Made by a program: the position numbers and the translations under genes. From a virus, in IMG/VR virus record IMGVR_UViG_3300025809_000068, positions 1-32,235 of that record: a stretch of DNA of 32,235 nucleotides, one strand, 5' to 3'. This document shows, one piece after another, positions 20,996 through 32,235 of this stretch (its first letter is position 1; each line of letters starts with the position of its first letter). The notes under the pieces are model-generated. The model was not told the DNA's origin. It saw only the letters and a program-made list of their open reading frames with translations, and made no database searches.

Positions 20996-22975
20996 TTAAG
21001 CTACGCAGTCAATCTTAACTACAGGTTCGTTACCAGTCGCACCGGCTACTAGCTCTTCAAAGCCTAGGGCTTGTGAAGCAACTACTACGTTGCGCTGATT
21101 ACCAACTTCATAGTCAGTCTCAACAGTTACGCCACGTAGACGTGGGATAACATAGTTACGTGAGTTAACAGCGAAGGCTACAGGTACACCAGCACCTTCA
21201 GTAGCGAAGCTGTCAGATACGATTACAGGTGAACCGAATACAGATCCGATTTGACCAGTGATCTTAGTTGCCAGATCAGAACCTACATCAGTAACGTCCT
21301 GGAAGCCTGCATCTTCGATAAGTTCGAAGTAACGAGCTTGTGACACGATGTATGCAACATCAGCAGGGTTAACACCATACTTACCCATAGCTTTACGAGC
21401 AGTAAGGAGGCCAGCTGCAGTCAATGTAGCTGAGTTACCTGCGGCGATTGAACCGCCATCGAGGTCGATGCTTGAACCACTAGCTGCGGCATAGCCGTCA
21501 AGACCAGTGATAGAACCTGAACCGTTGATGATAGCGTTATCAACAGCGCGAGCGTGAGCACGTGCTACTGAGTCAACAAGCATAGGCATTAGGTTGATAA
21601 GAACTTGCTCATCTACGTTGTTGTCCATGAAAGTCTGGCTAATCAAACGATAAGCGTTCAAGATTACCTGTGAAGGCTTGAAAGTGTTGTCTGAAGCACC
21701 ACGGTTTTCCAAGTTACCTGCTGCAGCTGCACCAGTTTGGAAAGTAGCGGCCTCTACGTCAGGCTGGATTGGCATTACAGTAGCAGCACCATTCACCTGA
21801 ATCTCACGGAACAGACCAGCTGTACGCAAGTTTAGAGTAACTTCTTTTTCGATTTGACGAGCAACTTCTTGATCGATGTCACCAGCGTTGCTAGCATAGT
21901 CGATACCAGCTTTTTCCATAACGCCACGAGCAAAATCAGTGTCCATGCCCTTGCCAGTCATAGTACCAAGCAATGAAGCGTGCATGAAGTCTTTGCCCCA
22001 CTTAGTAACGTCGCCTTTTTCAGAACGGTCACCGAAAGTACGCTTGCTGTTACGCATAGCTTCGATTTCAGAAGACTTCTCTTCTAGTTCTGTTTTGAAT
22101 GATGCGAGTACTTCGTCCATCTTAGCGTCCTTTTCAGTCAGCTTAGCTTCGAAGTTGCTCATTAGTGATTCAACGCCAGACTGAATACCAGTCTTAACTT
22201 TGATTTCTTGTGCTTCAATAAATGAAGCCTGTTCAGCTGCTTTTTCTACTTCTGCTTGCTCAGCTGCTTTTTGCTCGGCTTGCTTCATAGCAATCTTAGC
22301 AGCTGTGTCTTCAGCTACCTTCTTTGCAAAAGCTTCCAAGTCGATGTTTTGATTATCCATCTTGATCTCCTGATCTACGGATTTCTCCGCGCTTTGAGGT
22401 GTGTCACTAGCTATTCCCGAAGTAATAACTTCATCCTTAGCCAGAGACTGACCTGCTAGATCTACACGATTTGTGAAAGTTTTTTTGAATTCTTCGTACT
22501 CAGCATCTGAGTCGAAAGACTTCGCGAGCGAAAAAGTAGCTGACTGATTGCAGGGTACAGATACAACTGATACCTCGAATAATTCAGCGTCCTTAATCAT
22601 TAGTCCGTCGGTTTCCTTAATATAATCAGCATCCTTGACTCGGAAACCTACGGAAAAGGCCCCAAGAACACCGTCTTTAACTAGTTGAGCAACATTAGCA
22701 GGCGCGGCCTTACTAATCTTACATTCCAGCTCCAAGCCATCTGGTCCGGACTTCAGACCTGTAGCTCGACCAATTGGTTTATCATAGTCATGATTAAACA
22801 GGATAATTGGATTCTTTTCAAAGTTCTTTAGTCCACCCTTCTGCCATGCTTCTGCTGAAATGGAGTCACCCGCGCGATCAAAGTCAGCCGTGCTTGCCAT
22901 TCCACGAATCATTACAGAGCCGTCATCTTCTGCATGAGTCTTGAAAGTAGACGTCAGATTAAAGATTTTATTCAT
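20996..22975 (-). CDS. Fused prohead protease and HK97-type major capsid protein
   Basis: 659 residues in one frame. Residues 1-155 are an S78-type prohead protease: H62 (LFNHDYDKPIG), S108 (GAFSVGF) and E134 (ELFEVSVVSVPCN) are the likely catalytic positions. A spacer (155-205) leads to the capsid part from about 206: a charged coiled-coil delta domain (210-315), then the HK97 capsid fold (about 330-659) with FREIQVNGAATVMPIQ and RAHARAVDNAIINGSG. Maturation cleavage probably falls near 310-330. An internal ATG at 22360 has its own strong ribosome binding site. The capsid part uses more GC-rich codons than its neighbours, fitting high expression. The gene follows the portal and a small protein. 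Confidence 0.93.
   Translation of the reverse strand: MNKIFNLTSTFKTHAEDDGSVMIRGMASTADFDRAGDSISAEAWQKGGLKNFEKNPIILFNHDYDKPIGRATGLKSGPDGLELECKISKAAPANVAQLVKDGVLGAFSVGFRVKDADYIKETDGLMIKDAELFEVSVVSVPCNQSATFSLAKSFDSDAEYEEFKKTFTNRVDLAGQSLAKDEVITSGIASDTPQSAEKSVDQEIKMDNQNIDLEAFAKKVAEDTAAKIAMKQAEQKAAEQAEVEKAAEQASFIEAQEIKVKTGIQSGVESLMSNFEAKLTEKDAKMDEVLASFKTELEEKSSEIEAMRNSKRTFGDRSEKGDVTKWGKDFMHASLLGTMTGKGMDTDFARGVMEKAGIDYASNAGDIDQEVARQIEKEVTLNLRTAGLFREIQVNGAATVMPIQPDVEAATFQTGAAAAGNLENRGASDNTFKPSQVILNAYRLISQTFMDNNVDEQVLINLMPMLVDSVARAHARAVDNAIINGSGSITGLDGYAAASGSSIDLDGGSIAAGNSATLTAAGLLTARKAMGKYGVNPADVAYIVSQARYFELIEDAGFQDVTDVGSDLATKITGQIGSVFGSPVIVSDSFATEGAGVPVAFAVNSRNYVIPRLRGVTVETDYEVGNQRNVVVASQALGFEELVAGATGNEPVVKIDCVA
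22358..22371 (-). promoter_or_regulatory. Internal ribosome binding site and start for free capsid protein
   Basis: Minus strand AGGAG (22371-22367), six bases (ATCAAG), then ATG at 22360, in frame as M206 of the fused gene. This is a better site than the AAGGAT before the full-length start. Initiation here would give a 454-residue protein that begins exactly at the delta domain and lacks the protease. Confidence 0.75.
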
Positions 22976-23290: not shown

Positions 23291-24479
23291 CTTCGTTTGT
23301 TTCCTCTGGTCTTCCGCCCTCATCGGGATTAGTTGCAGAACCTGCGATATTTGCAGGAACTCTTATTTCTTCTGTGCCTTCGATAGCTTCGAAACCCAAT
23401 CGTTCTCTTGCTTCTGCGGCAGTAATAATACCACCGTTTACTAGTGATGTGTAGTAAGCGGATGCATCTCTCAGCTCAGGCTGTAGAGCGGGTATATCAC
23501 TGATGTCTTCTTTTAACTCGAAACCGAAATATCTTTCGCATGCAAAATTAATTTTTCGAACTATAGGAAGTATAGTCTCAAGATAATACATCCGCATATT
23601 TGGGCGAATGTTGGCGTTGTTGCCAGAGTCCATCATAATTGGAGGTACTCCGAGCGCCTTCAAAATTATCTTTTCATTGTCTGCGATACTATTTTGAAAA
23701 TCAAGATCTTTAAAATTTACATTTGAGATAGAATCTACTTCAATTCCACCGTCCAAAATAAGGGGTCTACGACCGCCTGCTTCTGGTTGATATCGTGACT
23801 GCCACGACACCATCATACGTTCTTTAATCTTCTCAGAGAGTGTGTTTGGTGACTTGAGTACCAAGCCTGGAACAGCACCATTCTTAAAGAAGTTATCTTG
23901 GAACTTACGCATCTTCATCATAAGTTGCATAGTACGTAAAGCAGGGCTTAAACGTGGAACACCTCTATAAATTGAGTAAAAGGAGTTCTCTTTAATATGT
24001 ATAATCTCACTAGGCTTATAATTTACTTTCTCATTGTAAGTGAACTTTTCAATGTAAGTATCCGAGCTAGCGTGAATAGTCATCTTGTCTGCTGGTAAGT
24101 GATAGAGATGTGCTCCATCATAGTAGATAAAGATGTTACCATCAAGTATAAAGTCAATAATTAAGTTACGCTTGAAAGTATTAATGTCTTGGAAAGGATT
24201 AGGCTCTTGGTTTAAAAGTAAGTCTACTTTAGCACGTTTGATGCCTTTAATGATGCTATTGCCTTTATGTTGTCCGCCTACTTGTGTAGGGATTTCGGCT
24301 GCATCATCTACAATAATGTTTACTGCACGATTTACGACTTCTAGCTCTTCGTAAGCTCTCTCATAAGAAAAGGTAGGCTCACGAGAAGTTTGAATATCGT
24401 TGCCGTAAAACTGCTGTGCAGGATTCAGCTTCTCTTCAACTTCTACAGGTTTTTTCTCAAAAGGATTATACCAAGCCAT
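23280..24479 (-). CDS. Portal protein (HK97 type)
   Basis: 399 residues from the ATG at 24479 (MAWYNPFEKK); the upstream in-frame ATG would add 17 unlikely residues inside the HNH gene. Typical portal features: VNRAVNIIVDDAAEIP in the N-terminal part, DFILDGNIFIYYDG, SIYRGVPRLSPALRTMQL, and IILKALGVPPIMMDSG with the following helix (MRMYYLETILPIVRKI). The C-terminus is Glu/Asn-rich. The dodecameric portal forms the DNA entry vertex and terminase docking site. The gene overlaps the HNH gene by 14 nt and the next gene by 11 nt. Confidence 0.92.
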   Translation of the reverse strand: MAWYNPFEKKPVEVEEKLNPAQQFYGNDIQTSREPTFSYERAYEELEVVNRAVNIIVDDAAEIPTQVGGQHKGNSIIKGIKRAKVDLLLNQEPNPFQDINTFKRNLIIDFILDGNIFIYYDGAHLYHLPADKMTIHASSDTYIEKFTYNEKVNYKPSEIIHIKENSFYSIYRGVPRLSPALRTMQLMMKMRKFQDNFFKNGAVPGLVLKSPNTLSEKIKERMMVSWQSRYQPEAGGRRPLILDGGIEVDSISNVNFKDLDFQNSIADNEKIILKALGVPPIMMDSGNNANIRPNMRMYYLETILPIVRKINFACERYFGFELKEDISDIPALQPELRDASAYYTSLVNGGIITAAEARERLGFEAIEGTEEIRVPANIAGSATNPDEGGRPEETNEDGE

Positions 24480-24831
24480 GTTTTTCTCTTTGAATCTCCA
24501 CCCAGCGCATCTGCTTTTTAGCTGTTCCAAGCCCAGGGTCTTTGCCGTAAATTGAGTGCAATTTTAAATGATGAGTATGGCACAGAGTAACTGTGTCGTC
24601 ATATAGCTCAGCATGATGCTCTTCTATAAAGTCATCCCGAAGTGACTGAATGTACTCAGGATTGTGTTTGTTCTTTGTTAACCATTGATTCAACAAAGGA
24701 GTTAAACTGTAAAAGTGGTGAAAGTCTAACTGCTCTGTTTCGCCACAAATCTCACAAGAGGAACCCTTTGCATACTTGGACTTTGCCTTATCTCGTACAT
24801 ATTTTACTACATCGCGTTTTAGCTTAGGCAT
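24466..24831 (-). CDS. HNH endonuclease, packaging-associated
   Basis: 121 residues. C26 and C29 (CEIC), H38/H39 (DFHHFYSL), and the late cluster C84, H87, H88, H92 (TLCHTHHLKLH) give the HNH beta-beta-alpha-metal site with a structural zinc. The basic N-terminus could hold DNA. HNH proteins next to terminase and portal are common and in HK97-like systems are needed for terminase cutting during packaging. It is the first gene after P3, with AAAGGAAA before the ATG. A free-standing homing role is less likely because it is integrated in the operon with overlapping ends. Confidence 0.88.
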   Translation of the reverse strand: MPKLKRDVVKYVRDKAKSKYAKGSSCEICGETEQLDFHHFYSLTPLLNQWLTKNKHNPEYIQSLRDDFIEEHHAELYDDTVTLCHTHHLKLHSIYGKDPGLGTAKKQMRWVEIQREKHGLV

Positions 24832-26925: not shown

Positions 26926-27242
26926 TATTTCTTCCCTGCATATGCGTTGGCTCCAAAGAATGCTGAAACCAGGGCTGCGATAGCTACAAAGTAAGTGGGA
27001 GCAATATCACCGATTATTTTAGCGGCGCTATCTAATCCGAATAATGATGTGCAGAATATGCCGAAAGGATAAAGTAGCATTCCTGATAAGGAAAACCATG
27101 TCATCTTTCGCATTGCATCACGCTGTGCATCTTGGTCTTCAAGTTCTTTGCGCTTGAATTCCATATACATTTGTTGTTCGGCGTCGGAAACTTCTCCGTC
27201 CCCATTAGTGTCTGCGGGATGAAAATTCTTGTCGTCTACCAT
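26925..27242 (-). CDS. Membrane protein with one EF-hand loop, holin candidate
   Basis: 105 residues. D11-N13-D15-G16-V18-E22 (DTNGDGEVSDAE) is a complete canonical 12-residue EF-hand calcium loop at the N-terminus. A charged helix (about 23-48) follows, then two hydrophobic segments (near 49-70 and 84-102), ending AYAGKK. Two helices, small size and company of other membrane genes fit a class II holin-like protein, but no holin family is recognised. It overlaps its upstream neighbour by 7 nt and the next by one. A calcium-gated membrane protein would be unusual in a phage. Confidence 0.7.
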   Translation of the reverse strand: MVDDKNFHPADTNGDGEVSDAEQQMYMEFKRKELEDQDAQRDAMRKMTWFSLSGMLLYPFGIFCTSLFGLDSAAKIIGDIAPTYFVAIAALVSAFFGANAYAGKK

Positions 27243-27541
27243 TTTACTTTATCCGCCCAATATGCTGCTGACATTTTGCCTTTAGCGATATTCTTAGCGT
27301 GTCGTGCTTTGAAACTTTTACGCTTTGCTTTTGCTGCTGCAGATTCTCCAGCCTTCGGCTTCCCTGCCGTTTTAGCTCCTTGCTGGCCGAAACGAATCGT
27401 TTTTACTTTACCGCCAGATTTAGCTACTACGATATGAGACTTCTTAGCATGGCCTGGAGTACGTTTTGGTTTGTTATAACCGCTAACGCCTGCCCGTTTC
27501 AGTCTTGAGTCTTTTTTCTTCGCTTTTCGCTTTGCTGGCAT
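27236..27541 (-). CDS. Basic conserved phage protein (DUF6321-like)
   Basis: 101 residues, very rich in Lys and Arg. Characteristic segments are RLKRAGVSGYNKPKRTPGH, IRFGQQGAKTAG and FKARHAKNIAKGKMSAAYWA, a combination I recognise from many marine phages and believe belongs to DUF6321 (name from memory). There is no membrane segment or signal peptide. Its charge suggests DNA binding, either in packaging or as an internal virion protein. It lies in a run of small basic genes between the terminase genes. Confidence 0.7.
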   Translation of the reverse strand: MPAKRKAKKKDSRLKRAGVSGYNKPKRTPGHAKKSHIVVAKSGGKVKTIRFGQQGAKTAGKPKAGESAAAKAKRKSFKARHAKNIAKGKMSAAYWADKVKW

Positions 27542-27546
27542 AAAGA

Positions 27547-27738
27547 TTACTCCTTGTCTTGCTTGCCGGAATCGACGACACCTTTGACGTCTTGTCCGAC
27601 TGCTACTGTAATATCTGCTACTGTGTTGCCTACTCCGCTTAGAGTATTGTTTACCATGGCCTGCGTGCCGTCAATGGCTGCATTCATGGTTCCACAAGCT
27701 CCGAGTAGTAGTGCAGATACTATAACTAAATACTTCAT
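27547..27738 (-). CDS. Small lipoprotein
   Basis: 63 residues with a lipoprotein signal: MKYLVIVSALLLGAC, a classic lipobox (LGAC) with C15 as the lipidated residue. The mature 49 residues are Ala/Val/Gly-rich with helical periodicity (TVADITVAVGQDVKGVV) and end in a charged tail. GGAGAAACAG precedes the ATG. Size and lipidation fit an outer-membrane spanin subunit or a superinfection-exclusion lipoprotein; it lacks the proline-rich stretch common in Rz1. The 85-nt gap upstream holds no clear signal apart from a weak stem. Confidence 0.75.
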   Translation of the reverse strand: MKYLVIVSALLLGACGTMNAAIDGTQAMVNNTLSGVGNTVADITVAVGQDVKGVVDSGKQDKE

Positions 27739-27823: not shown

Positions 27824-28096
27824 CTATTTCTTTCTTCGCTTCATAGTAGCTTTACGCTTCTTTTTCACGAATGTTTTTACCATAGTGGGTTTACCACCAG
27901 GGTTGCCTGCTTTTCTTTTTCTTCTAATAGCAGACTTTTTCTGTGCTGCAGTCATACGAGCTGCTTTTGCTTTGGGCACACACTTCGGGTACTTGCTGCT
28001 TTTTGCTTTGCCTCTACCACACTTAGCGTAACCTCCGCCCTTCTTTGGACGGGAGATGTCTACCCATTCTTCTTTGAACCATTTCTTGAGACTCAT
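27824..28096 (-). CDS. Basic Cys-containing phage protein (DUF5872-like)
   Basis: 90 residues, highly basic. WVDISRPKKGGGYAKCGRGK, then YPKCVPKAKAARMTAAQKKS, then RRKRKAGNPGGKP form a pattern I know from many marine phages (DUF5872 from memory). C26 and C39 might bind a metal or form a disulfide. The C-terminal 20 residues are almost all Lys/Arg. The start overlaps the previous gene by 4 nt (ATGA). A DNA-associated or virion role is inferred from charge and location near terminase. Confidence 0.68.
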   Translation of the reverse strand: MSLKKWFKEEWVDISRPKKGGGYAKCGRGKAKSSKYPKCVPKAKAARMTAAQKKSAIRRKRKAGNPGGKPTMVKTFVKKKRKATMKRRKK

Positions 28097-28281
28097 TTCT
28101 TGACCCCCATTCGGTACTTACCACCTCTTCGCTTATACTCTTTTACTAGGAAGGCATTTGCATATGCGGAAGGGTATACTTTAAACTTTCGTTTTACTGT
28201 AGCTTTTACAGAGGCATAGAGTCTTTTATTTGTCGGTACCGGCTTTTTCTTTGCCGTCTTCCTTCTTTTCTTTGCTGCCAT
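28093..28281 (-). CDS. Small basic protein with YPSAYAN motif
   Basis: 62 residues: 16 Lys and 7 Arg against one Glu. Central motif FKVYPSAYANAFLVKEYKRRGG recurs in small marine phage proteins in my memory (given here as YPSAYANAF, VKEYKRRGG). AGGAGATTTTAG before the ATG supports the start even though it lies 56 nt inside the upstream gene. The fold is unknown; nucleic acid binding is likely from charge alone. Confidence 0.7.
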   Translation of the reverse strand: MAAKKRRKTAKKKPVPTNKRLYASVKATVKRKFKVYPSAYANAFLVKEYKRRGGKYRMGVKK

Positions 28282-28926: not shown

Positions 28927-29132
28927 TATATTTTAGTAAGAAGGGTGACCAGAACACCCGCTAGGAACATTATCATAGTTCCACCCATAGTTAGCATTCT
29001 AGACTCAATACGCATGAGTCCTGTTTCCATATCTTCGAGTCTTTGAAAACAAGTTTTCCAACGCTCTTCACACTGAACTTCATGAGCGTACATCTTCTTT
29101 TCAATTTCAGTTATTCGATCAATCTGTTCCAT
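28926..29132 (-). CDS. Coiled-coil plus C-terminal helix protein, XhlA/holin-like
   Basis: 68 residues: an amphipathic coiled coil (1-45, with two cysteines C21 and C28) then one membrane helix (46-66, MLTMGGTMIMFLAGVLVTLL). The layout matches the XhlA haemolysin family, whose members support holin action at the inner membrane. It overlaps terS by 14 nt and the next gene by one, so it is co-transcribed from P4. Holin assignment is by architecture only. Confidence 0.62.
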   Translation of the reverse strand: MEQIDRITEIEKKMYAHEVQCEERWKTCFQRLEDMETGLMRIESRMLTMGGTMIMFLAGVLVTLLTKI

Positions 29133-29580
29133 TGAGTAGTTTATCCATTAGCTTACCATAATTACCTTGACCGAATGGAACAGCTTCATTAATCTGTACA
29201 TTAGTCTGGTTTTTGATATTGCTACCTTCTGCTTTAGCGAGGTCGGCTTGTGCCTTGATCTCGTCTATACGCATTTTATGTGCCATTTGTAATAGATCTG
29301 CTAAGTCTTTGCTAGAGTATACGCCAGATTCCTGGGCTTCTTCTAACTTAGATGCGATCATCTCGTCTAACAGGGAACCAATGTTGTTCTTGTTACGGTA
29401 GCCCATGTCCAAGTACACTGTGTCAATGTACTTCTTTACTTCGCGTGTATTTAACGCATCAACTACTCGCTGTTCGGGTACTTGAAGATATTCGCATACT
29501 GCCCGAATATTTCCGTATTGAAGATAACTATTCGCTATCTCCAGTCCCTCAGGACTAATTGTAGTTAATTCTTTTGCCAT
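29119..29580 (-). CDS. terS: Terminase small subunit
   Basis: 153 residues. The N-terminal part (about 10-45) reads as a helix-turn-helix, EIANSYLQYGNIRAVCEYL followed by VPEQRVVDAL, which would bind the packaging site. Helical oligomerisation segments follow (SLLDEMIASKLEEAQ, DLADLLQMAHKMRIDEIKAQ), and a polar C-terminus that may contact the large subunit. The ATG lies only 7 nt after the P4 -10 hexamer and has no ribosome binding site, so the message is probably leaderless. Assignment rests on pattern and on being the first gene before a terminase block; sequence divergence in this family is high. Confidence 0.75.
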   Translation of the reverse strand: MAKELTTISPEGLEIANSYLQYGNIRAVCEYLQVPEQRVVDALNTREVKKYIDTVYLDMGYRNKNNIGSLLDEMIASKLEEAQESGVYSSKDLADLLQMAHKMRIDEIKAQADLAKAEGSNIKNQTNVQINEAVPFGQGNYGKLMDKLLNGTD

Positions 29581-29633: not shown

Positions 29634-30092
29634 TTAATCAGAGAGTGGATTATCTAGGGCTCTCTGTAGTTTCTTTTCTAGTCGATCTTCCAGATCTTCC
29701 ATGTCTTGTTCCGAGTCTGCTTTCATAGCGTCGCGCTTAGTTTCAAAGCGTTCGCTTGCTTTATCTATCATATCTCGTACTTCGGTTTCCATAGCACGTA
29801 CTTTATCTTCCGCGCGATCTGCTTGCTTCTCGATTGAAAGTATATCATCTCTCAACCCAGATTTAATGTCTCGTGTGTATTCAATAGCATCGTCGAGCTT
29901 TTGCTCTATTTGAAGGTTTCGTGCTGCGATAGCATCTGTGTCGATATTCTGGACGATTTCTTTCATGTCCATATAATCTGCGTAAAATTCAAAGCCTGCC
30001 CATGCTGCACCACCAAGTGTGGAAAGTGCTGTAAGCATAACCATCATTCTGCCGCCTTTAAACGTCATACCTCCAAATTCAAACTCTGCCAT
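29634..30092 (-). CDS. N-anchored coiled-coil membrane protein (i-spanin-like topology)
   Basis: 152 residues. A short head (FEFGGMTFKGG), one membrane helix at about 16-36, then a long charged coiled coil (45-145) rich in Asp, Glu, Lys and Arg, ending ALDNPLSD. AGAGGAG lies 5 nt before the ATG, a strong site, one base after the previous stop. The topology is that of an inner-membrane spanin (Rz-like), but related sequences in marine phages are usually left unnamed. It closes the exported-protein cassette just before P4. Alternative roles include an envelope scaffold. Confidence 0.68.
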   Translation of the reverse strand: MAEFEFGGMTFKGGRMMVMLTALSTLGGAAWAGFEFYADYMDMKEIVQNIDTDAIAARNLQIEQKLDDAIEYTRDIKSGLRDDILSIEKQADRAEDKVRAMETEVRDMIDKASERFETKRDAMKADSEQDMEDLEDRLEKKLQRALDNPLSD

Positions 30093-30093
30093 G

Positions 30094-30519
30094 TTACTCC
30101 TCTACAAATTGTAGGTTCCTGAGATTCGCTATCTCTTGTTTTAACTTCATTACTTCCATGCGTTTCTTTTCTAACTCTAACTGGTAAAGAGTATTACAAT
30201 TGATGCGTTCTTTTGGAGCACCAATTGGTATTGTAATTTTTGCGTATACACCTATGTCACTTGCTCGTGTTGTAGGCATAGTTGCGTCATAGGGCGTGTT
30301 ATTGTAAGGGTCTTGATATTGATTGTCAATAAAACCCACAACCCCAAACTCTACGTTGGTTGCTGAACCAATCGCATTTTGACAATCTAACTGCCCTGCC
30401 CTAATTCTATCTGATGCGTAGCTCTGTGGCGAGCTAGGCAGATTAAGGTTTAGAGAGCTCGAATCCGCCCAGGCTACTCCGCAGAGCAGACATAGAGCTA
30501 GTAGTAGTATTATTCGCAT
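30094..30519 (-). CDS. Secreted protein with C-terminal helix
   Basis: 141 residues from ATG 30519; a GTG nine bases upstream is also in frame. The signal peptide is MRIILLLALCLLCGVAWA, cleaved before DSS. The mature part has SYASDRIRAGQLDCQNAIG, a beta-rich centre (NVEFGVVGFI, DIGVYAKITIPIG), then RINCNTLYQLELEKKRMEV leading into a charged helix. Two cysteines (in LDCQN and INCNT) could pair. The start lies 77 nt inside the upstream gene. It travels with two other exported proteins, so a shared periplasmic or surface assembly is inferred. I recall similar proteins in marine phages without a function. Confidence 0.75.
   Translation of the reverse strand: MRIILLLALCLLCGVAWADSSSLNLNLPSSPQSYASDRIRAGQLDCQNAIGSATNVEFGVVGFIDNQYQDPYNNTPYDATMPTTRASDIGVYAKITIPIGAPKERINCNTLYQLELEKKRMEVMKLKQEIANLRNLQFVEE
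30301..30329 (-). promoter_or_regulatory. Promoter-like element inside a coding region
   Basis: Minus strand TTGACA (30329-30324), 17-nt spacer, TACAAT (30306-30301): 11 of 12 consensus bases. It lies within the secreted-protein gene, encoding IDNQYQDPYNN, and lacks the A-rich upstream block of P1 to P4. It could drive the membrane coiled-coil gene, but chance is possible. Confidence 0.35.
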
Positions 30520-30904
30520 CGTTCTCACTTTTTATTTTTGAACATATTCTTGAGGTTATGATAGAAGGATCTTTTGTACCTGAAAGGATTTTTGATTTAG
30601 AGCATATGTATGCTACTTTTTCTGCATCTCTTTCTCTTATGTACACTTCTATGTTTTTTCTTTCTAAGTATGGTAAATTGATGAGTTTGTTTGTGCTGGC
30701 AAAAGCTACACTATTCCAGTCTCGATCATAAACACCAATAGAGTACCAATCAATTTCTTGCCGACTATTGAATAGACTCATTCGAACTACCTTTACTCCG
30801 CTTACATATGACGTTTGTAAGTCTGGGTAAGTGGGAGTAAATTGATGGGCACTTGCGTACCCACCTAAACACAATAAAGCAAAAAGTATTATTGAGCGAT
30901 ACAT
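30443..30904 (-). CDS. Secreted Ig-like protein, pilus-chaperone-like
   Basis: 153 residues. A signal peptide MYRSIILFALLCLGGYASA is cleaved before HQFTP. The mature part reads like the first domain of a PapD-type chaperone: VKVVRMSLFNSR, WYSIGVYDRDWNSVAFA, then LPYLERKNIEVYIRE and YICSKSK. Order and spacing fit an Ig fold in which an N-containing strand precedes V.D..W..V.F. Two cysteines (YICS, RICS) may form a disulfide. A second chaperone domain is absent. It overlaps the pilin-like gene by 16 nt and runs 77 nt into the next gene. The chaperone idea is inference. Confidence 0.7.
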   Translation of the reverse strand: MYRSIILFALLCLGGYASAHQFTPTYPDLQTSYVSGVKVVRMSLFNSRQEIDWYSIGVYDRDWNSVAFASTNKLINLPYLERKNIEVYIRERDAEKVAYICSKSKILSGTKDPSIITSRICSKIKSENDANNTTTSSMSALRSSLGGFELSKP

Positions 30905-31392
30905 TCTGCCGTTACCATAGCTGTGTAATCCCCTGCTGGGAAAGATTTATCATAACCATAGTCTGCGGTAGATGAAACGTCAAACCATACAGAACCTGCG
31001 ATCGTTAGATCAAACTCGACTGTATTGTTATACTCGACTTTATTAGTTTCAAACTCTGACATACTTGCGTCCGAGGTTTGACCCACTACTACATCGCCTG
31101 TCCAGTTTACTACGTCTTCTAATACGGGACTAGAGGAGAAGGAGTCTGGGTAGGTGACAATTGCTTTGTAGTGGTCTGCTGCTAAGATGTCGTAACGAAT
31201 AATGGGTTTTACACCACCAGACGCAGAAGACGTACTTAGTTCGCTTGGACTTGGGTTACCGTACACTCCAGACGTATCAGTTTGAATGACACATTTGGAC
31301 TCTACTGTTCCCAAGATGGGTACGTTAGCGAGTGCCGAAGTAGATACTAAGGCGGCTAACAGGATGAAAGGCTTTTTCATATGAATGTCCAT
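30889..31392 (-). CDS. Secreted pilin-like beta-sandwich protein
   Basis: 167 residues; a more natural signal peptide start is M5 at 31380 (MKKPFILLAALVSTSALA, cut before NVP). The mature chain has C36 near its start (VESKCVIQTD) and one more cysteine at the very end (AMVTAECIAQ), which could link the first and last strands. The closing GDYTAMVTAEC resembles the final strand of fimbrial and spore-coat-U-type subunits. The body is strand-rich with many Ser/Thr/Asp. It sits directly upstream of the chaperone-like gene and overlaps it by 16 nt. A surface fibre subunit or adhesin is a reasonable guess; no family was confirmed. Confidence 0.7.
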   Translation of the reverse strand: MDIHMKKPFILLAALVSTSALANVPILGTVESKCVIQTDTSGVYGNPSPSELSTSSASGGVKPIIRYDILAADHYKAIVTYPDSFSSSPVLEDVVNWTGDVVVGQTSDASMSEFETNKVEYNNTVEFDLTIAGSVWFDVSSTADYGYDKSFPAGDYTAMVTAECIAQ

Positions 31393-31422
31393 TTAGGCAT
31401 TAAAGCCTCTGTGGTAGTGTTA

Positions 31423-32235
31423 TTAGTCATATTGGGCCTCTACCATTTCTTCATGAAGCAATTGTTGAGCCAGCCCAACTCTCCTTGCTTTTTCATTGTC
31501 TGGTAGCTTTCCATCTACCAGTACTACTGTATCCGCATACACGCCACCATTGAGTGACCCTGTATAACTGCGGGGTATGTAGTTCATTGCAAAAAGTGCG
31601 TTAGCCTGTGCTGCGGCTTGGTCACTCATTGCTCCAGTATTAATACCACCTAGCATCTTCTCTAGGTTTACTTTTACTTTTTTGATGCGCATCTTGCGCT
31701 CGTATTCTTCCTCTTCGTCAATCTTCGCTTGCTTTTCCATCTCTGCAAGAACAAACTCATCCTGAAGCGGGTCATACACATCTACGTCAGGTATTAACGA
31801 AGGATCATACGGTATTTGGTAGTCAGGGCACGAAGGATCTGATTGTGGGTCAAAGCAAGGATCATACCTATAGCTGTACACCACTGATGGGTTTGCTACT
31901 GTACCGAATCCTTCGACCGAGATCGAGCCGTCACCCCATGCTTCAATCGGAATATCTCCTACACCAACTACTTTGTAAATCTTGTTGCCAGGTAATCCTG
32001 ACCAGTCATCACTTTCTCTAAAAATATACCCGTCTCCGAGTGCATTCTCGTTTGAAACGTGTACAATCATGTCATCTTCTACGTTTTTTATCGCTTGGTA
32101 ACGATATATTACAGATGAAACGGTTAAACCAGCTTGCTGAGGCAGTACATTTTGCATGTACCAGTCATAAGCTGATATTCGTGCCTGTCCGTATACTTCC
32201 TCAGAGTATGAGGAGGGCGCCAAGCAAACTAAGGA
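31423..32235 (-). CDS. Exported hypothetical protein, 5' end cut by window
   Basis: 270 residues visible. The frame is open to the window edge, and the first residues SLVCLAPSSYSEE look like the end of a signal peptide, so the true start lies beyond 32235 and an apparent TTG start at 32223 is not credible. A central Asp/Pro-rich stretch (DPCFDPQSDPSCPDYQIPYD) holds two cysteines. A charged helix follows (EMEKQAKIDEEEEYERKMR), then a conserved-looking end (AAAQANALFAMNYIPRSYTG, GVYADTVVLVDGKLPDN, LAQQLLHEEMVEAQYD). It begins the secreted cassette. A proline after the alanine makes the cleavage site uncertain. I do not recognise a function. Confidence 0.7.
   Translation of the reverse strand, partial: SLVCLAPSSYSEEVYGQARISAYDWYMQNVLPQQAGLTVSSVIYRYQAIKNVEDDMIVHVSNENALGDGYIFRESDDWSGLPGNKIYKVVGVGDIPIEAWGDGSISVEGFGTVANPSVVYSYRYDPCFDPQSDPSCPDYQIPYDPSLIPDVDVYDPLQDEFVLAEMEKQAKIDEEEEYERKMRIKKVKVNLEKMLGGINTGAMSDQAAAQANALFAMNYIPRSYTGSLNGGVYADTVVLVDGKLPDNEKARRVGLAQQLLHEEMVEAQYD

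What the first reader, a model, noticed from the sequence alone, without database searches (positions are those of the whole stretch)
29634..32235. Phage cassette of exported, pilus-like proteins
Three complete adjacent genes have clear signal peptides, and a fourth at the window edge retains what looks like the end of one. They include a pilin-like protein with first-strand and last-strand cysteines, a protein resembling one domain of a pilus chaperone, and a secreted protein with a C-terminal helix. They overlap and run into an N-anchored coiled-coil protein. Virion proteins are not normally exported by the Sec route, so these should act in the envelope of the infected cell: a surface fibre, receptor masking, adhesion between cells, or lysis. 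This is the best candidate here for an undescribed system.
Basis: inference. Interest (0 to 1): 0.75.

Follow-up and report, generated by a model that had tools for sequence, protein, structure and literature searches.

The report
Phage-encoded usher-less pilin-chaperone envelope cassette
Marine bacteria-infecting viruses carry a conserved set of exported proteins that includes a pilus-subunit-like protein and a half-sized pilus chaperone but no outer-membrane pore, so they probably remodel the surface or envelope of the infected cell rather than form part of the virus particle.

Summary
The window ends inside a six-gene cassette, Z-A-B-C-D-E (upstream part read from a near-identical 72.9-kb contig). 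Z, A, B, C and D have signal peptides in essentially every relative; E is an N-anchored coiled coil. The order never varies (144 loci with all six; >560 viral contigs encode C). AlphaFold plus Foldseek supports the structural guess: C (core pLDDT 93-97) hits chaperone-usher chaperones (PapD, SafB, Caf1M, FimC; 11 of 12 hits at E<=1e-3), with only domain 1 present and two invariant cysteines on the F and G strands; B (core 94-97) hits fimbrial subunits first (CfaB), weakly (E 1e-3). No usher or CsgG pore was found in 28/22 records. B-C-D is also a stand-alone module in cultured Vibrio phages (T5-like, podo-, sipho-, T4-like, jumbo), in the first three beside a conserved large, non-exported, fibre-like gene. 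In the window's family A-B-C-D is exchanged as a block: neighbours 98-99% identical, B/C 50-55%. Best reading: a periplasmic donor-strand-type complex that blocks or alters a surface receptor (superinfection exclusion). The function is inferred. Curli and a complete pilus are unsupported.

The parts
31423..32235 (-). Gene A, exported protein, 5' end outside the window (full 288 aa in L004:3152-4018): signal peptide, N-terminal domain with two conserved cysteines, charged helical stretch, C-terminal motif LPDNKKARRxGLAQQLLHEEMVxxQY
   Evidence: SP-like in 91/92 distinct relatives; no meaningful Pfam/PHROG match; co-varies with B, C, D
30889..31392 (-). Gene B, pilin-like exported protein, 167 aa; signal peptide MDIHMKKPFILLAALVSTSALA, mature NVPILGTVESKC...; invariant Cys34 and Cys164
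   Evidence: AlphaFold model mean pLDDT 89.1, core 94-97, residues 23-33 unpaired; Foldseek best hits CfaB (E 1.0e-3), FimF, PapG pilin domain, CsuA/B, FimG; 106 distinct relatives, all SP-like
30443..30904 (-). Gene C, exported one-domain PapD-like protein; invariant Cys101 (F strand) and Cys121 (G strand); no second domain; ~28-residue C-terminal tail not shared by most relatives
   Evidence: AlphaFold model mean pLDDT 85.8, Ig core 93-97; Foldseek PDB: 11 of 12 hits with E<=1e-3 are chaperone-usher chaperones; more than 563 viral contigs encode it
30094..30528 (-). Gene D, exported protein of ~120 mature residues; two invariant cysteines (Cys49, Cys111), 'SSLNLNLP' N-terminus, C-terminal charged helix; start most likely ATG 30519
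   Evidence: PHROG 37374 E 1.8e-5; profile finds Vibrio-phage homologues at 2.5e-13 to 6.7e-29; SP-like in 104/105 relatives; fold not predicted
29634..30092 (-). Gene E, N-terminal membrane anchor plus coiled coil, conserved C-terminal (R/K)ALDNPL(A/S)D; follows the cassette but is not exchanged with it
   Evidence: homologue in pelagiphage HTVC115P gp49, which has Z but no B-C-D; identity correlates weakly with A-D (r 0.47-0.56)
29119..29580 (-). Terminase small subunit, downstream boundary of the cassette (context only)
   Evidence: PHROG 3802 terminase small subunit E 5e-36

Best explanation
The cassette encodes an envelope complex made in the infected cell. Shown or well supported: Z, A, B, C and D are Sec-exported and under purifying selection; C has the fold of the N-terminal domain of a chaperone-usher chaperone; B has a fimbrial-subunit-like fold; no usher or pore goes with them; A-D are inherited and exchanged together. 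Inferred: C folds or caps B by lending it a beta strand (donor-strand complementation), the cysteines form disulfides, and B with D and A stays in the periplasm or on the outer membrane instead of being polymerised by an usher. Most likely role: acting on an outer-membrane receptor or surface structure so that further phages, or released progeny meeting cell debris, cannot adsorb to it. That would be superinfection exclusion, analogous in effect to T5 Llp but with unrelated proteins. Block exchange of A-D between near-identical phages, and the stand-alone B-C-D module beside a conserved large fibre-like gene in unrelated Vibrio phages, fit a factor that must match the receptor in use.
For: Export and cysteine content; C fold and B fold; sequence homology between the window's B/C/D and those of T5-like Vibrio phages (B 8.9e-6, C 1.1e-6, D 1.1e-21 in pVp-1); invariant order; identical number (179) and host breakdown of Vibrio phage records with B and with C; fibre-like neighbour directly upstream of B, homologous over ~700-860 aa in six Vibrio phages; exchange block: L004 vs L028 has Z 98, A 78, B 55, C 50, D 71, E 98, TerS 99 % identity, nucleotide identity falling at the Z/A junction and recovering at the D/E junction; A-D identities correlate with each other (r 0.74-0.85) more than with TerS (0.33-0.47) or E (0.47-0.56). 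Precedent: T5 Llp is a periplasmic lipoprotein that blocks FhuA; such proteins also prevent adsorption to lysed cell fragments (PMC9586334).
Against: No functional datum. The jumbo and T4-like phages have the trio in the order C-D-B without a fibre neighbour (D479: close to rIIA/rIIB), and in the window's near-identical contig the genes upstream of Z are not fibre genes. In Vibrio T5-likes the module also lies next to holin and endolysin, which fits lysis too. The window's A-D are not lipoproteins, unlike Llp. Only four of 28 close pairs show the exchange pattern. The fibre-like gene has no Pfam match and a PHROG of unknown function.
Confidence: 0.4

Rival explanations
1. Lysis or lysis-timing factors: the exported proteins, with anchored Z and E, destabilise or bridge the envelope late in infection, or sense superinfection to delay lysis.
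For: Trio sits next to holin and endolysin in T5-like Vibrio phages and close to rIIA/rIIB in D479; in the window it lies beside E, an anchored coiled coil of spanin-like layout.
Against: Thalassa already has an annotated Rz-like spanin elsewhere; K251 g3 carries the module between head and tail genes; pilin/chaperone folds are not known lysis folds; lysis factors have no evident reason for block exchange between near-identical phages.
Confidence: 0.22
2. A true surface filament or adhesin: B polymerises by donor-strand exchange, using C and a host usher or another route.
For: B resembles donor-strand pilins; its first mature residues V24-P-I26-L-G28-T-V30 alternate hydrophobic with an invariant glycine and are unpaired in the model; C is PapD-like.
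Against: No usher or CsgG in the records searched; C lacks domain 2 and the strand-A arginine; B has only ~11 residues before its first cysteine, one copy per locus, and no C-terminal tyrosine motif.
Confidence: 0.13
3. Interference with host chaperone-usher pili: B and C mimic subunit and chaperone and jam host pilus assembly, as the assembly inhibitor FimI does.
For: Both parts imitate that pathway's proteins; FimC chaperones from FimI-bound complexes are among the hits.
Against: Hosts of the window's family are unknown, and it is not shown that hosts carry such pili; does not explain D, A or Z.
Confidence: 0.1
4. Virion or post-lysis decoration: the exported proteins bind the phage fibre after lysis and are part of the particle.
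For: Linked to fibre-like genes and to late structural genes.
Against: Signal peptides on all five; assembly of tailed phages is cytoplasmic (established knowledge). No proteome paper on these phages was found in the library, so there is no direct test.
Confidence: 0.08

Closest known systems
Chaperone-usher pathway chaperones (PapD/FimC; FGL type Caf1M, SafB)
   Same: C has the fold of domain 1 (11 of 12 PDB hits at E<=1e-3); two invariant cysteines on strands F and G, where FGL chaperones have their F1-G1 disulfide (PMC4133393); conserved lysine at the end of strand G
   Different: One domain only; no strand-A arginine; no PapD_N match; F-G loop about 13 residues; no usher
Chaperone-usher fimbrial subunits (CfaB, FimF/FimG, CsuA/B, Caf1)
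   Same: B's best structural matches; first mature residues alternate hydrophobic and stay unpaired in the model; gene next to a chaperone-like gene
   Different: Weak match (E 1e-3, TM about 0.4); no Pfam fimbrial match in 44 members; short N-terminal segment; cysteines in the first and last strands; single subunit, no usher
T5 Llp / T1-type Cor superinfection-exclusion lipoproteins
   Same: Small exported phage proteins made in the infected cell; D of some Vibrio phages has a lipobox-like LAAC (L002, L131) and the module is followed by a small putative lipoprotein there
   Different: Unrelated proteins; several proteins with pilin/chaperone folds; the window's D has no lipobox
Curli (CsgA/B/E/F/G)
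   Same: Exported proteins proposed to act at the surface
   Different: No CsgG in 22 records; no Csg family match; folds differ

Membership tests
Chaperone-usher chaperone (PapD superfamily) | Domain 1 of Ig/PapD fold | tested here: met
   C model core pLDDT 93-97; PDB hits PapD 1.3e-4, SafB 2.1e-4, FaeE, SfaE, Caf1M, FimC
Chaperone-usher chaperone (PapD superfamily) | Second Ig domain | tested here: not met
   C family ends at strand G (...SRICSKIK); median length 128 aa with signal peptide
Chaperone-usher chaperone (PapD superfamily) | Subunit-anchoring Arg in strand A and Lys in strand G (R8/K112 of PapD; PMC4133393) | tested here: inconclusive
   Strand-G Lys125 conserved in >=90%; no Arg in the TPTYP strand-A segment
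Chaperone-usher chaperone (PapD superfamily) | F1-G1 disulfide (FGL class only) | tested here: inconclusive
   Cys101 and Cys121 invariant in 49 sequences and on strands F and G of the model; bond geometry not measured
Chaperone-usher chaperone (PapD superfamily) | Sequence match to PapD_N (PF00345) | tested here: not met
   No match at E<=1 in 28 records; none in 49 members
Chaperone-usher system | Outer-membrane usher (PF00577) | tested here: not met
   0 of 28 records, control E. coli positive; the IMG/VR records may be fragments, the phage records are mostly whole genomes
Fimbrial subunit (pilin of the chaperone-usher pathway) | Pilin-type Ig fold | tested here: met
   Best PDB hits are pilins, about 20 of the top 50; E only 1e-3
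Fimbrial subunit (pilin of the chaperone-usher pathway) | Missing last strand, completed by a donor strand | not testable with these tools
Fimbrial subunit (pilin of the chaperone-usher pathway) | N-terminal donor extension with alternating hydrophobic residues | tested here: inconclusive
   V24/I26/G28/V30 pattern, G28 invariant, unpaired in the model, but only ~11 residues
Fimbrial subunit (pilin of the chaperone-usher pathway) | Match to a Pfam fimbrial family | tested here: not met
   0 of 44 members
Curli | CsgG pore | tested here: not met
   0 of 22 records, four control genomes positive
Superinfection-exclusion lipoproteins (Llp/Cor) | Lipobox and outer-membrane receptor blockade | tested here: inconclusive
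   No lipobox in the window's A-D by inspection; LAAC in D of L002 and L131; blockade not testable

The most novel reading that the evidence does not exclude
Phages in the sea carry a stand-alone, usher-less donor-strand system (one-domain chaperone, pilin-like subunit, partner D) that is exchanged as a specificity cassette and coats or locks a surface receptor of the infected cell: a use of pilus-assembly chemistry not described before.
Probability: 0.35. Interest if true: 0.8.

Novelty: new variant of a known kind. Interest (0 to 1): 0.62.

Why it matters
Exported proteins of tailed phages are few and mostly unstudied. Here one family is common in marine viromes (over 560 contigs for C), recurs in several unrelated kinds of phage, and can be tested at once because cultured Vibrio phages (pVp-1, Thalassa, 252E42.2) carry it. 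If the proposed role holds, it would show pilus-type folds reused by viruses to control the surface of infected cells.

Tried and rejected
Sequence searches failed to name anything: Pfam for all proteins and for all members of the B and C alignments, PHROGs only families of unknown function, PDB by profile (chance-level hits). Curli/CsgG was my first guess for marine phages and was rejected. Usher: none. A bacterial origin was looked for in 84,980 genomes: only 5 loci, in metagenome-derived assemblies and with the same phage-type gene order where enough is held, so the family looks viral. Literature searches for phage-encoded pilins or chaperones and for virion proteomes of these phages found nothing relevant; the library is open-access only. 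A donor role for D's N-terminal SLNLNL strand was considered and set aside because Vibrio and jumbo D lack it. Foldseek against viral models for C gave mostly unnamed or uncharacterised proteins and generic Ig domains. E was considered part of the exchange unit and excluded.

Full report
What is there. The window is an IMG/VR virus record of 32,235 bases. Its right end holds, on the minus strand, five genes in transcription order A (31423-32235, cut), B (30889-31392), C (30443-30904), D (30094-30528) and E (29634-30092), followed by the terminase small subunit (PHROG 3802, E 5e-36). A contig of 72,864 bases (L004) encodes identical A-E proteins and supplies the missing start of A and one further exported gene, Z, whose end overlaps the start of A. 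Z has a signal peptide, a KSPPPSAITP segment, four cysteines and a C-terminal hydrophobic segment.

More than chance. With profiles built here, 144 loci show Z-A-B-C-D-E exactly; nearly all the rest are contig ends or the distant groups below, and no other order occurs in the window's family (loci partly overlap; the distinct proteins number 106 B, 109 C, 105 D). Signal-peptide-like N-termini occur in practically all Z, A, B, C and D but in 1 of 54 TerS and 3 of 50 TerL; after cleavage B, C and D nearly always keep two cysteines, A two or three, Z four. dN/dS in comparisons with the window's sequence is about 0.04-0.27.

Folds. C was modelled at mean pLDDT 85.8, Ig core 93-97. Of 12 PDB hits at E<=1e-3, eleven are chaperone-usher chaperones and the twelfth an MSP domain of the same superfamily. 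The family ends with strand G, so the second chaperone domain is absent. Cys101 and Cys121, invariant in 49 sequences, lie on strands F and G; a disulfide there is a mark of FGL chaperones, and an Arg in strand A and a Lys in strand G anchor the subunit (PMC4133393). A strand-G Lys is kept, the Arg is not. B was modelled at 89.1, core 94-97, with residues 23-33 unpaired. Its best hits are CfaB, then FimF, the PapG pilin domain, CsuA/B, FimG, Caf1; about 20 of the top 50 are chaperone-usher subunits, but no E-value is below 1e-3. The unpaired segment reads V-P-I-L-G-T-V with an invariant glycine, as a donor strand would; this is inference. No usher was found in 28 records and no CsgG in 22.

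Elsewhere. The D profile finds cultured Vibrio phages at 2.5e-13 to 6.7e-29, and the B and C profiles find pVp-1 at 8.9e-6 and 1.1e-6 (E-values for the set of reading frames held here). The trio B-C-D is complete in T5-like pVp-1 and Thalassa and in 252E42.2, K251 g3, D81 and K120. C-D-B, with a more distant B, is seen in jumbo-sized 2.275.O and D479 and in T4-like 1.081; there B and C are named from position, signal peptide and cysteines, not from a significant score. B and C were each found in 179 Vibrio phage records with the same host counts. In the first six the gene before B is a large non-exported protein, homologous in all six over ~700-860 aa, fibre-like by position and composition, of unknown PHROG function. 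Pelagiphage HTVC115P has Z, an A-like gene and E without B-C-D, so B-C-D is an insertable module.

Exchange. Pairwise identities of A, B, C, D correlate with each other at 0.74-0.85, with TerS at 0.33-0.47. L004 and L028 are 98% identical in Z and E and 99% in TerS but 78, 55, 50 and 71% in A, B, C, D, with nucleotide identity dropping at the Z/A and recovering at the D/E junction; L015 and L019 show the converse, sharing A-D at 93-98% with E at 64%. Four of 28 close pairs show the first pattern. A-D therefore look like one unit that is replaced as a block.

Mechanism. Shown: export signals, folds of B and C, absence of an usher in the records searched, co-inheritance. Inferred: C lends a strand to B; the complex stays in the envelope; its target is a surface receptor. 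I put superinfection exclusion at 0.4, lysis or lysis timing at 0.22, a filament at 0.13, interference with host pili at 0.1, a virion part at 0.08. T5 Llp gives a precedent for the effect, not for the proteins (PMC9586334).

Limits. Only two structure jobs were available, so D, A, Z and all complexes are unmodelled; signal peptides come from a simple rule; hosts of the window's family are unknown (its TerL is about 50% identical to that of T5-like phages of Gammaproteobacteria).

Noticed in passing
27236-27541, 27824-28096, 28093-28281 (-): Three small, very lysine-rich proteins in a row; the first is PHROG 7595 (unknown), and similar proteins occur in Roseobacter phage CRP-810 (gp50) and pelagiphage HTVC023P. 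Possibly DNA- or capsid-associated.
   Followed up: partly
20996-22975 (-): One 659-aa reading frame appears to join a prohead protease to the major capsid protein.
   Followed up: no
24466-24831 (-): HNH-type protein directly after the large terminase gene, as in cos-packaging phages.
   Followed up: no
27547-27738 (-): 63-aa putative lipoprotein (LLGAC) on the same strand downstream; small putative lipoproteins also follow B-C-D in Vibrio phages (ISGCTFNFTIDTDYA). Candidate exclusion or spanin component.
   Followed up: no
L004:2677-3240; HTVC115P gp54; CRP-810 gp53; JWAlpha gp25: The Z domain (SPPPSA...C...NCE...CQD...GTPCP) is shared by pelagiphages, Roseobacter phages and an N4-like Achromobacter phage (PHROG 20531, unknown), each with a signal-peptide-like start.
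   Followed up: partly
30443-30528 (-): C of this lineage runs ~28 residues past the usual end of the family, giving the long overlap with D; the tail is modelled with low confidence.
   Followed up: yes
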